Source of the DNA: an uncultured Acidobacteriia bacterium
Lineage (GTDB): Bacteria; Acidobacteriota; Terriglobia; Bryobacterales; Bryobacteraceae
Length of the DNA: 58,487 nt
Assembly: GCA_903875575.1 (NCBI GenBank)
Contig: CAIQWJ010000089.1
Coordinates: 1-58,487 of the forward strand
Reading direction: 5' to 3'
The first letter of the stretch is position 1, and the number at the start of each line of letters is the position of its first letter. Both the position numbers and the translations under genes were made by a program. Of the stretch, positions 1,482 through 12,566 are shown piece after piece. The notes beneath the pieces are model-generated. The model did not search any database and was not told the origin of the DNA. It worked only from the letters and a program-made list of their open reading frames with translations.

Positions 1482-3508
1482 AACGCACGCAAATGTCCCT
1501 GATCGCCGCGCTCTGCCTCGCCGCGCCGCAACTCCACGCCCGCATCACGAAGATCACCATCGCCTCACGAGCCGTCGCCTTCAACAGCCAGACGTTCGGC
1601 ACTGCGGGCCAGTTTGAGAAGATCAAGGGCATCGCCACCGGCGAGATCGATCCAAAATCCCCCCGCAACGCGCTCATCACCGATATCCAGTTCGCCCCAC
1701 GCAACGCCAAAGGCCTCGTCGAATATCGCACCAACTTCACGCTCGTGAAGCCGGTCGATATGAACAGATCCTCGGGCGTTCTCTTCTATAACGTCGTCAA
1801 TCGTGGCGGCCATCAGGGTGTTTCCACCTTCCACGTTGGTGCCGATCCCGGCGACGGCTTCCTCTACAAGCTCGGCCAGGCCGTTCTCTGGAGTGGCTGG
1901 CAAGGTGATATCCCCCTCGTGACCGACGGTTCCGACCGCGAAGGCATCGACGTTCCCATTGCCCGCAATGCTGATGGTTCGCCCGTCACCAGTCCGGTAT
2001 GGGACCGTATCACCGCCGCCACAGGCAACACGCAGTCGCTCCCCGGAGCCAACGGTCGTGCGCCCGCCACTCTGGATACGACAAAAGCCAGGCTGATCTC
2101 CGAAGTTTCTGAAACCCCCGCCGGTGTGAAATCTGGAGTGGTCAGTATTCCATCGACCGACTGGGCGTTCGCCGACTGCCGCACCACTCCGTTCCCCGGC
2201 ACGCCCGACCCCACCCGCATCTGTCTCCGTAACGGTTTCGATAAGAACCTGCTCTATGAAGTCGTCTACACTGCGAAAGACCCGTACATCCTCGGTGTCG
2301 GTATGGCCGCGACCCGTGACATCGTGTCCTTCTTCCGATACGCGCAGAAAGACGATGCTGGCACCGCGAACCCGCTCTACGGCACTATCCCCCACGTCAT
2401 CGGCATGGGCGATTCGCAGTCCGGCCGTTTTGCCAAGACTTTCCTGAACCTCGGCTTTAATGAGGATGAAAACGGCAAGATCGTCTGGGACGGCCTCAAT
2501 GCCCGCATTGCCGGCATGGAAGGCGGCTTCAACGTCCGCTTCGCCAAGCCCGGCGACATGGCCGAAATGTACGATCCCGGTGCCGATGGCCCGCTCTGGT
2601 GGGACGATTACACCGATACCGTGCGTGGCCACTCCGCCTGGGGCTTACTGCATCGCTGCCGTCAGACGCAGACCTGTCCGAAGATCACCGAGACATACGG
2701 AGGACCGGAATACTGGTATAGTCGCGGCTCCGTCGGCATCGCGGGCACCACGGGTAAAGAGGATCTCCCCCTGCCTGCCAACGTACGCCGGTACTATCAC
2801 GCCGGTACCACGCACGGAGGCGGTCGAGGCGGTTTCGGTCTGGGCACCGCAGGCAACAATCCGAATCCTGAGAAAGAGACGGATCGCGCCCTCTATGTTG
2901 CTCTGGTCGATTGGGTCGTGAAAAACGTCGAACCCCCGCCCAGCGTTTATCCCCGCGTCATCGATGGCACTCTGGTGCCGGCGAATTCCGCCGCGATGGG
3001 CTGGCCCAACATCCCGAACGCCGCAAAGCCCGATGGAGTCGTGAACCCTGTGCTCGATTACGACTATGGCCCCGAGTTCCGCTACAACGATGAATCCGGC
3101 GTCATCACCAACGTCCCGCCCGCGATCAAACACGTCATCCCGATGATGGTCCCGAAAGTCGATGCCGATGGCAACGAACTCGGTGGCATCCGGTCCTTGC
3201 TGGCGCGCGTTCCGCTCGGAACCTACACCAGTTGGAATCCGATCCCCGATGGACCGCTGAAGGGCCGGGAGCGATCCCTCGCTGCGGGCTACATCCCGTT
3301 CCTGAAGACGAAGGCTGAACGAATCGCCTCGGGTGATCCCCGCCCTTCCATTGAAGAGCGTTACCCCACGGCCTCCGCCTACTACGGAGCCGCCGTGAAA
3401 CAAGCCAGCGAACTGGTAAAGCAGCGCCTCCTGCTGCCCGATGATGCCGTCCGTCTCCTCAACCAAATGGTCACGGACCTGGAGGCGAGCCACCTTTTAC
3501 ACGACTAA
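1478..3508 (+). CDS. Secreted alpha/beta hydrolase domain protein (Abhydrolase_10-like)
   Basis: 676 residues beginning with a signal peptide (MKRTQMSLIAALCLAAPQLHA). It resembles the large extracellular alpha/beta hydrolase-domain proteins common in Acidobacteria and Proteobacteria. A GDSQSGR stretch near residues 311-317 is the probable nucleophile elbow; HGGGRGG and PMMVPKVDADGN are further family-like segments. The substrate is unknown, with esters or lactones likely for the fold. It starts inside the stop of the aminotransferase (ATGA). Its last 12 bases overlap the 3' end of the convergent histidine kinase, so the two transcripts must overlap. Confidence 0.75.
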   Translation: MKRTQMSLIAALCLAAPQLHARITKITIASRAVAFNSQTFGTAGQFEKIKGIATGEIDPKSPRNALITDIQFAPRNAKGLVEYRTNFTLVKPVDMNRSSGVLFYNVVNRGGHQGVSTFHVGADPGDGFLYKLGQAVLWSGWQGDIPLVTDGSDREGIDVPIARNADGSPVTSPVWDRITAATGNTQSLPGANGRAPATLDTTKARLISEVSETPAGVKSGVVSIPSTDWAFADCRTTPFPGTPDPTRICLRNGFDKNLLYEVVYTAKDPYILGVGMAATRDIVSFFRYAQKDDAGTANPLYGTIPHVIGMGDSQSGRFAKTFLNLGFNEDENGKIVWDGLNARIAGMEGGFNVRFAKPGDMAEMYDPGADGPLWWDDYTDTVRGHSAWGLLHRCRQTQTCPKITETYGGPEYWYSRGSVGIAGTTGKEDLPLPANVRRYYHAGTTHGGGRGGFGLGTAGNNPNPEKETDRALYVALVDWVVKNVEPPPSVYPRVIDGTLVPANSAAMGWPNIPNAAKPDGVVNPVLDYDYGPEFRYNDESGVITNVPPAIKHVIPMMVPKVDADGNELGGIRSLLARVPLGTYTSWNPIPDGPLKGRERSLAAGYIPFLKTKAERIASGDPRPSIEERYPTASAYYGAAVKQASELVKQRLLLPDDAVRLLNQMVTDLEASHLLHD

Positions 3509-10962: not shown

Positions 10963-12566
10963 CGCGCCTGGTTAGCCTCCCGTCCTGCCAGGCCAGACCT
11001 GGCGCGGATACGGTCCGCCTTGTCCAGTAAGGTGAGGACGGGCTCAAGACAGGTGACATCCCTGATTACGAGATTGCTGAACTGGAACAGCATCGCCAGT
11101 TGCTTGCCGGACGCACTGGCAGGAACGCTGGAGTAGACGTGCGCCAGGCGGTCTCGGTTGGGCCCCCGGTAATTTTTCAGAAACGAATTCCGGAGCTGCA
11201 ATCCGATGCCTTCCTTCAGAAGGAACTGTTCCTCCTTCAGTTTTGCCACGCGGGCCAGCGCCTCTGCCACCTTGTTTCGGGTCAGCATGCCATCGAAAAT
11301 CGGAATCTCCATCCCCATGCCTATACTCCAGCCTTCCTTGTTTGGAGCCGTGGCCATGCCCGCGTTGTAACTGTTCCACCAGCGATGCAGTTCGCCTGTC
11401 AGCGCCAGTTTCGGATAGTATTCGGCGCGCGCCGTGGTGACGGCACCGTTGTACGCCCGGAGACCGGCTTCCAGCTTCGACCAATCGGGGTTGAATTGAT
11501 AGGCCGTACTCACCAATTCATCCAGATTGCCCGCATAGGGGCGATAAGGAATCTCCTCGTCGGCCGGCCGGACCGTCGAAGTCCAGGGTTGTCCCATGGT
11601 GTAGGCGAGCGCAGCTTCCGACATCGCCCGGTTTTTCTCCAGTTCCGCGACCGTGGAGCGAATCGTCTCCACCATTTCCAGGTTGTCCAGGTAATCGGCC
11701 TTGCTGACTTTGCCGGCTCCGTTTTTATACATGGATTCCGTCAGCTCCAGAGTGACTTCCATGCGCGCAAGCGTATCGACTCCCACCTGGTGCAATTCGC
11801 GCGCCAGCAGGGCACCGTAATACATCCTCACCACACTGTCGGTGATTTCCAGATCCGTGCGCCGCACTTCGGCCTGCGCTGCCTGCACGCCACCGAGCGC
11901 CTGCTCGCGATAACCCTTCCGCATGCCGCCATCAAACAGCAACCAATTCATATTGGAAGACACGTTGAAGTTTTGAGGATCCGCCAGTTTCACGTTCTGC
12001 TGCGGAATGGCGAATAACTGAGGGTTTGTGCTGACAGTCTGTCCCGGGAAACTAACCGGCATCTGGAGATTTGCGGGCGGAAATCCGGGCCCAAAGGCGT
12101 TGGCCGGGATGGTGACAGATGCAGTGCCTCCCGGCACATCGACCGTCTGCGAGGGGATATACATCATGCCGGACGGGAAGATGAAGGTCGACGGCTGATC
12201 GAGCCGCATCCAGCCGCCCTTCGCCGTCAACTGGGGCCAGTAGGCCGCCAGCGCCTGCCGATGCTGGGCCTCCGCGATGGTCACGGCCAATCTGGAGGCG
12301 GGCCTGCGGTGGTTGTTTTCCATCGCAATCTCCAGGCATTTGGCGAACGTCAGGATCTGTGGCGCTGTGACCGACGTGGTTGTGAGGGAAGGTACGGACG
12401 GATTGGCCACGCCGATGGCCGCAGAGGCCGCCGCATTCGCAGCCTCCGGCGTAGCCGCCGTCGCGGCGCTTCCCGCGAGCAGGGAAAACAGGGTCACGGC
12501 TCCCATTGCGGTCGAAAAAAGGCGATTTGCAGCAAAGCTCATGGGATCTCTCATTTCTGTAGGCAC
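10959..12566 (-). CDS. TolC-family outer membrane efflux protein
   Basis: 535 residues including a signal peptide; ATG at 12566, 12554 and 12542 are all possible starts, the last giving MSFAANRLFSTAMGAVTLF. Two repeated outer-membrane-efflux halves are visible, with long amphipathic helices (for example LEITDSVVRMYYGALLARE and LDNLEMVETIRSTVAELEK) and the family-typical PIFDG segment after GMGMEIP. It should form a trimeric outer membrane channel. No adaptor or inner membrane pump gene is next to it; it leads a sensory operon instead. The stop overlaps the start of the PhnD-like gene (ATGA). The channel may use a pump encoded elsewhere or have a signalling-linked export job (inference). Confidence 0.88.
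   Translation of the reverse strand: MPTEMRDPMSFAANRLFSTAMGAVTLFSLLAGSAATAATPEAANAAASAAIGVANPSVPSLTTTSVTAPQILTFAKCLEIAMENNHRRPASRLAVTIAEAQHRQALAAYWPQLTAKGGWMRLDQPSTFIFPSGMMYIPSQTVDVPGGTASVTIPANAFGPGFPPANLQMPVSFPGQTVSTNPQLFAIPQQNVKLADPQNFNVSSNMNWLLFDGGMRKGYREQALGGVQAAQAEVRRTDLEITDSVVRMYYGALLARELHQVGVDTLARMEVTLELTESMYKNGAGKVSKADYLDNLEMVETIRSTVAELEKNRAMSEAALAYTMGQPWTSTVRPADEEIPYRPYAGNLDELVSTAYQFNPDWSKLEAGLRAYNGAVTTARAEYYPKLALTGELHRWWNSYNAGMATAPNKEGWSIGMGMEIPIFDGMLTRNKVAEALARVAKLKEEQFLLKEGIGLQLRNSFLKNYRGPNRDRLAHVYSSVPASASGKQLAMLFQFSNLVIRDVTCLEPVLTLLDKADRIRARSGLAGREANQAR

What the first reader, a model, noticed from the sequence alone, without database searches (positions are those of the whole stretch)
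3497..12566. Six-gene coupled operon joining TolC, a PhnD-like binding protein, two kinases, a GGDEF-EAL regulator and YfiR
Seen: TolC, PhnD-like, GAF kinase, Rec-PAS-GGDEF-EAL, YfiR and CHASE8-type kinase run in one direction, and four of five junctions are ATGA overlaps. Known: YfiR controls cyclic di-GMP in Pseudomonas, and PhnD-like proteins bind small phospho-ligands. Inferred: two periplasmic inputs (binding protein to kinase 1, YfiR to kinase 2) converge on one cyclic di-GMP enzyme, with an outer membrane channel made in fixed ratio to the sensors. I do not know of this combination as a described system.
Basis: partly seen in the sequence, partly recalled or inferred. Interest (0 to 1): 0.72.

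Follow-up and report, generated by a model that had tools for sequence, protein, structure and literature searches.

The report
Two envelope sensors sharing one regulator
An acidobacterium carries, in one run of genes, two separate outside-sensing kinase systems joined at a single enzyme for the messenger cyclic di-GMP; each half exists on its own elsewhere, and the supposed TolC channel at the front turns out to be a cut-short fusion.

Summary
The six reading frames are real, on the minus strand, 3497-12566, with four 4-base overlaps. They are two modules. Module A is a TolC-family protein, PhnD-like binding protein(s) and a CACHE kinase; it recurs in 24 distinct loci of several phyla, with no YfiR in the stretches held, and 20 flanking or downstream proteins scanned held no RND, adaptor or ABC pump part. 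Module B is a REC-PAS-GGDEF-EAL regulator, YfiR and a CHASE8 kinase; a same-genus genome holds B and, on another contig, A with its own copy of that regulator. In the window one regulator sits between both kinases, whose cores group together. Corrections: the 'TolC' is a chimera ending in a PhnD tail, so a channel 'in fixed ratio' is not supported; the PhnD-like protein is nearest to arsenic-sensing ArrX/AioX, without their Ser-x-Ser site. YfiR with a kinase output is already described (PMC3375315). The full six-gene order was found in no other genome examined.

The parts
11181..12566 (-). Module A: TolC-family OEP, residues 1 to about 462 only (GTG start as called; a later ATG is possible)
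   Evidence: PF02321; 75% identity over 486 columns to the L070 OEP; second repeat cut at 113/187
10959..11183 (-). Tail fused in frame to the OEP: C-terminal ~76 residues of a PhnD1/PhnD2-type binding protein
   Evidence: 55% identity, E 5e-26; no OEP-tail match
9916..10962 (-). PhnD/ArrX/AioX-like periplasmic binding protein; nearest to the kinase-adjacent copy of L070 (62% over 307 columns)
   Evidence: PF12974; ArrX best by profile and by fold
7898..9919 (-). K1: CACHE-like sensor, HAMP, GAF, HisKA, HATPase; His436 by motif
5589..7730 (-). Response regulator REC-PAS-GGDEF-EAL between the two kinases; REC Asp55, GGDEF and EAL motifs present, no RxxD just before GGDEF (motif meanings recalled); the ORF can be read from TTG 7901
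   Evidence: relatives
5038..5592 (-). Module B: YfiR-like periplasmic protein (one Cys only)
   Evidence: PF13689; NCBIfam NF053591 123.8 bits against cut-off 125
3497..5041 (-). K2: CHASE8-HAMP-HisKA-HATPase kinase; His290 by motif
   Evidence: PF17152; NCBIfam NF053592 'HK_near_YfiR_like' 175.6 against cut-off 194
7731..7897 (-). Gap between the two modules; 44 bases are 73% like the stretch before the module-B regulator in L109 (weak)
   Evidence: E 0.002 against three short stretches

Best explanation
The locus is two envelope-sensing modules joined through one cyclic di-GMP response regulator. Module A: an ArrX/AioX-like binding protein reports an unknown ligand, by docking, to the CACHE-like sensor of K1 (inferred from AioXSR/ArrX and from recurrent gene order). 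Module B: YfiR holds down K2 through its CHASE8 domain until released (inferred from YfiR-YfiN). Both kinases lack a receiver and would phosphorylate the same REC domain (inferred), which sets the balance of GGDEF and EAL activity. The OEP that normally heads module A was cut by a deletion that fused it to a PhnD tail and removed further PhnD copies, so in this species the channel part is probably dead (inferred) and the binding-protein input is down to one copy. Shown: domains, gene order, the fusion in the assembly, the separate existence of both modules, close kinship of the regulators, grouping of the kinase cores. Not shown: phosphotransfer, ligands, direction of enzyme control.
For: A same-genus genome (G540; its C44 stretch is identical to that of G454, Bryobacterales bog_234) holds OEP-PhnDx3-K1-regulator (L070) and regulator-YfiR-K2 (L109) on separate contigs. 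The regulators of window, L070 and L109 form one clade in the REC-PAS-GGDEF tree (99/99), inside the module-B regulators L139 and L149; in the EAL tree window, L109, L139 and L070 are one clade (98/99) with no order resolved inside it (7 rows each). K1 and K2 cores fall in one group of 12 of 35 rows (SH-aLRT 96) with K2 of L109, L139, L149 and K1 of L070, L086, L087, L053. Of 30 other matches to K2 in the own genome the best is K1, 53% and 267 bits. Module A lies beside REC-PAS-GGDEF-EAL also in L074 and L086. The model of the PhnD-like protein (pLDDT 84.9) best matches ArrX and AioX.
Against: The joined six-gene order was found nowhere else: of 165 order genomes, 10 others have an OEP of 50% identity or more, 2 others a YfiR of 50% or more, one genome has both, on different contigs. 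The K1/regulator junction is the one without a supported overlap. Only 3 of 24 module-A loci have a REC-PAS-GGDEF(-EAL) regulator beside them; many end in hybrid kinases. The core tree is a quick, unrooted one in which cores under 200 aligned residues or 60 bits were left out (K1 of L073 and L074 among them), and its 12-row group also holds an own-genome kinase with no regulator beside it and two hybrids. That kinase (C85) is nearly as close to K2 as K1 is, 52% and 244 bits. The trees do not say whether joining or splitting came first; a breakpoint test for a chimeric regulator was not significant (p 0.09 on protein, 0.36 on nucleotides). The locus is in a draft assembly; the deletion was not checked on reads.
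Confidence: 0.57

Rival explanations
1. The regulator serves K2 alone (its usual partner), and K1 with its binding protein talks to another regulator; the two modules are merely neighbours.
For: The regulator stays with YfiR-K2 in L109, L139 and L149, the last two with one ORF between; gap rather than overlap between K1 and regulator; a weak upstream match to the module-B regulator.
Against: In bog_234 K1 has its own copy of the same regulator next to it (L070); K1 of window and L070 has a kinase core of K2's group, while K1 of L073 lacks a Pfam HisKA and is followed by a hybrid kinase.
Confidence: 0.25
2. A locus in decay, or mis-assembled: the OEP/PhnD fusion and the missing TonB receptor mark loss of function rather than a working circuit.
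For: The OEP lacks about 85 residues and ends in a PhnD tail; a TonB receptor stands before YfiR in all 13 such ORFs scanned elsewhere, a chosen set, and is absent here; the regulator of L070 has a frame break between GGDEF and EAL.
Against: PhnD, K1, regulator, YfiR and K2 are open and carry their domains and motifs; L109 also lacks the TonB receptor yet its three frames are open.
Confidence: 0.15
3. One reading: a working TolC channel made in fixed ratio with the sensors.
For: Module A elsewhere carries an OEP at or near its head, whole in L070.
Against: Here the OEP is a chimera.
Confidence: 0.03

Closest known systems
YfiBNR / YfiR-YfiN core (Malone et al. 2012, PMC3375315; passages read)
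   Same: YfiR next to a transmembrane protein with a periplasmic sensor and HAMP; the paper reports divergent systems in which GGDEF is replaced by GGDEF-EAL, HPT or histidine kinases
   Different: No YfiB-like gene among the proteins scanned here; output is a kinase with a separate GGDEF-EAL regulator; one Cys in YfiR, so no disulfide within one molecule; joined to module A
AioXSR / ArrX arsenic sensing (PMC5908839; passages read)
   Same: PhnD-fold sensory binding protein; nearest solved structures by profile and fold; kinase gene adjacent
   Different: Ser-x-Ser not kept; Asn-Pro-Gln in 28 of 28 rows; tandem copies and an OEP in relatives; CACHE-like sensor; cyclic di-GMP regulator
XAC2383 of Xanthomonas citri (PDB 5ub3, seen as a hit; its pairing with a diguanylate cyclase is recalled, the paper not held)
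   Same: PhnD-fold binding protein tied to cyclic di-GMP (recalled); Foldseek rank 7
   Different: Here a separate kinase and regulator stand between, and relatives have an OEP at the head
TolC/NodT outer membrane factors
   Same: PF02321; NCBIfam outer_NodT 80 bits, far under its cut-off of 210
   Different: No RND, adaptor or ABC part among 20 proteins scanned around relatives; truncated in the window

Membership tests
YfiR-YfiN type module | YfiR-family periplasmic protein | tested here: met
   PF13689 120.2 bits against cut-off 24.9; NF053591 just under its cut-off
YfiR-YfiN type module | Partner with CHASE8-type periplasmic domain and HAMP in the next gene | tested here: met
   PF17152 39.6 bits against 27, HAMP 33.9 against 25
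YfiR-YfiN type module | YfiR represses the partner | not testable with these tools
   needs binding and activity assays
YfiBNR proper | GGDEF on the CHASE8 protein | tested here: not met
   K2 ends in HisKA-HATPase
YfiBNR proper | YfiB lipoprotein in the operon | tested here: not met
   none of the six proteins nor the three flanking proteins scanned matches an OmpA-like family; no genome-wide search was made
AioX/ArrX sensory binding proteins | PhnD fold with ArrX/AioX nearest | tested here: met
AioX/ArrX sensory binding proteins | Pocket Ser161-x-Ser163 (AioX numbering) | tested here: not met
   0 of 28 rows Ser-x-Ser; 6 of 28, the window among them, keep the first Ser, 2 of 28 have Ser-x-Thr (placed by the ArrX alignment)
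AioX/ArrX sensory binding proteins | Pocket Tyr88, Cys106, Tyr131, His192, Asp210 | tested here: inconclusive
   at the places I took for His192 and Tyr88 0 of 28 rows have His or Tyr, but the AioX-to-ArrX numbering was placed by eye; the other three not settled
AioX/ArrX three-component systems | Histidine kinase gene next to the binding protein | tested here: met
   4-base overlap PhnD/K1
TolC-type outer membrane factor | Two complete OEP repeats | tested here: not met
   second repeat 1-113 of 187
Bifunctional cyclic di-GMP enzyme | GGDEF and EAL catalytic motifs (motifs recalled) | tested here: met
   GGDEF at 345, EALLRW at 491, DDFATGYS, KIDRSF, AEGIES present; activity not tested

The most novel reading that the evidence does not exclude
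OEP - tandem ArrX-like binding proteins - CACHE kinase is an undescribed, widespread envelope-sensing module in which a TolC-family protein works in signalling without a pump, and in one Bryobacterales genus it was grafted onto the YfiR cyclic di-GMP circuit by sharing its regulator, giving a two-input switch whose split and joined forms both exist.
Probability: 0.4. Interest if true: 0.7.

Novelty: new variant of a known kind. Interest (0 to 1): 0.5.

Why it matters
It offers a natural pair, one species with the two sensor modules joined at a single regulator and a same-genus relative with them apart and the regulator doubled, in which integration of two envelope signals into cyclic di-GMP can be tested. 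It also points to a recurrent use of a TolC-family protein beside sensors rather than pumps, seen in several phyla.

Tried and rejected
Efflux or transport operon: rejected as the best reading, because 20 flanking or downstream proteins of module-A loci held no RND, adaptor or ABC transporter part; these were chosen, not all neighbours, one (L088) is a sodium:solute symporter, and some are regulators of the module itself. Phosphonate ABC uptake: no permease or ATPase among the six proteins and three flanking ones. Chimeric regulator by recombination between the two paralogues: the first scripts were faulty (wrong frame, lost most of the alignment; both dropped); the sound one gave p 0.09 on protein sites and 0.36 on all nucleotides, so it is not claimed. 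A frame shift as the cause of the odd OEP tail: all three frames were read and none showed an OEP tail to my eye; the PhnD-tail fusion explains it. Relatives of the PhnD-like protein on plasmids: no match; in viral contigs: none confirmed. Papers: no paper in the held library has YfiR with PhnD and histidine kinase, DUF4154 with histidine kinase, PhnD-like with diguanylate cyclase and periplasmic, or TolC with PhnD and c-di-GMP; the listings showed nothing that described this set. The library holds open-licence papers only. Passages, not whole texts, were read in PMC5908839, PMC3375315, PMC10942540 and PMC8846402; all others were seen as listings. Selection to tell: the 13 proteins shown to carry a TonB plug before YfiR were picked because a large ORF lay there; the 526-residue ORF in that place in L139 matched no Pfam family. 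L050, L052 and L053 came in by their PhnD, the other module-A loci by their OEP.
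Full report
Observation. The window is one contig (C89) of a 5.98 Mb draft genome; the named relatives are mostly Bryobacterales, Acidobacteriota. Six ORFs run on the minus strand from 12566 to 3497 in the order stated; Pfam confirms each domain set. Four junctions overlap by 4 bases. The fifth, K1 to regulator, overlaps only with a TTG start; ATG 7730 lines up with the start of the L070 regulator. Such overlaps are common in this window, 8 of 24 same-strand neighbours by a crude call that counts the TTG start, 3 of 19 outside the run, so they show a tight operon of an ordinary kind.

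The TolC is not whole. The window OEP matches relatives to about residue 464, and residues 461-530 instead match places inside the PhnD genes of relatives. Reading L070, the same-genus relative, shows why: its OEP ends in a normal second repeat, while the window continues after ...LQLRNSF with the tail of a PhnD1/PhnD2-type protein (55% identity, E 5e-26; no match to the OEP tail). Pfam's second OEP repeat is cut at position 113 of 187 in the window and complete in L070; Pfam alone gives the tail no PhnD match. Relative to L070 about 1.1 or 2.1 kb are gone, depending on which PhnD copy supplied the tail (inferred from coordinates). Whether this is biology or assembly was not tested.

Module A. 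A scan of the species genomes of genome contigs with an alignment of four OEPs gave 19 loci. L076, where the contig ends inside the OEP, and L075 and L082, which are the contigs of L053 and L052, were not given to that script. A PhnD-like gene stands beside the OEP in 22 of 24 by script and in 23 counting L052, where it was seen; in L144 none was called. A CACHE-type kinase is present in 20 of 24; the other four (L071, L078, L085, L145) are cut by contig ends. In L078 the PhnD precedes the OEP. PhnD copies called number one to four. YfiR was found in 0 of 27 stretches, which are limited by the flanks held. By record title the loci are Acidobacteriota of several groups, a Desulfobacterales and another deltaproteobacterial MAG, a Nitrospirota, a Bacteroidetes and a Latescibacterota MAG and one unnamed bacterium. 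Partners differ: hybrid kinases, single receivers, and cyclic di-GMP enzymes, namely REC-PAS-GGDEF(-EAL) in L070, L074 and L086 and REC-DUF3369-HD_5 in L080. Twenty flanking or downstream proteins scanned held no RND, adaptor or ABC part.

Module B. In the phylum sample 83 of 396 genomes have DUF4154 and 104 of 396 CHASE8, often at neighbouring coordinates (seen by eye, not counted). In L109 (G454:C44, identical to G540:C44) regulator, YfiR and K2 form a run of their own, 74, 60 and 68% identical to the window's. L139 (G545, same genus) and L149 (G431, same family) have regulator, one other ORF, YfiR, K2; in L149 the other gene is a TonB receptor. A TonB plug was also found in all 13 large ORFs before YfiR that were scanned, L149 among them, a chosen set. 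The window and L109 lack it. Malone et al. 2012 (PMC3375315, passages read) already describe YfiR with partners whose output is a histidine kinase or GGDEF-EAL, so this half is a known kind.

The joint. G540 (same genus as the window) has module A with its own regulator copy (L070; the frame breaks between GGDEF and EAL) and module B with another. The regulators of window, L070 and L109 form one clade, 99/99, in the REC-PAS-GGDEF tree and nest within the module-B regulators L139 and L149; their own order is unresolved, and the EAL tree resolves less. So the module-A regulator of this genus most likely came from module B, by joining that was later split or by copying; the window shows the joined state. 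Kinase cores agree: K1 and K2 of the window, K1 of L070, K2 of L109, L139 and L149, and K1 of L086, L087 and L053 fall in one group of 12 of 35 rows with one own-genome kinase (C85, L154, no regulator called beside it) and two hybrids, while the other hybrid CHASE8 kinases lie elsewhere (quick tree, unrooted, some open forks; cores under 200 aligned residues or 60 bits were left out). Of 30 other matches to K2 in the own genome, one of them in the sensor part, the best is K1, with C85 close behind.

Order conservation. The six-gene order as such was therefore found only in the window.

Reading. Two periplasmic inputs on one cyclic di-GMP enzyme is the best-supported model, with phosphotransfer inferred. 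Novelty lies in module A and in the joint, not in the YfiR-kinase pair.

Noticed in passing
G000:C23:59328-59765 (L001, L056): A second, distant YfiR (26% identity) in the same genome, with a CHASE8 hit at C23:64271-64582 and a stretch 46% like the PAS-GGDEF-EAL part of the window regulator between them.
   Followed up: partly
window 3497-3508: K2 and the alpha/beta hydrolase gene 1478-3508 converge and overlap tail to tail by 12 bases.
   Followed up: no
window 12649-14843: An SH3-domain protein and a glycosyl transferase family 3 gene (trpD-like) lie directly upstream on the same strand, overlapping each other by 4 bases, 82 bases before the OEP.
   Followed up: no
L070:13488-15531: The regulator beside module A of the relative changes frame between GGDEF and EAL; a real break or a draft-assembly error.
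   Followed up: partly
G220:C6, G106:C2, G378:C1, G260:C35, G340:C136 (L058-L062, family f24): PhnD hits directly before weak CHASE8 hits on the same strand: possibly a binding protein in the place of YfiR.
   Followed up: no
L070:679-5784, L077:5375-9758: A PSD/PSCyt-type gene and an HXXSHH gene stand as a pair next to module A in two Bryobacterales loci.
   Followed up: no
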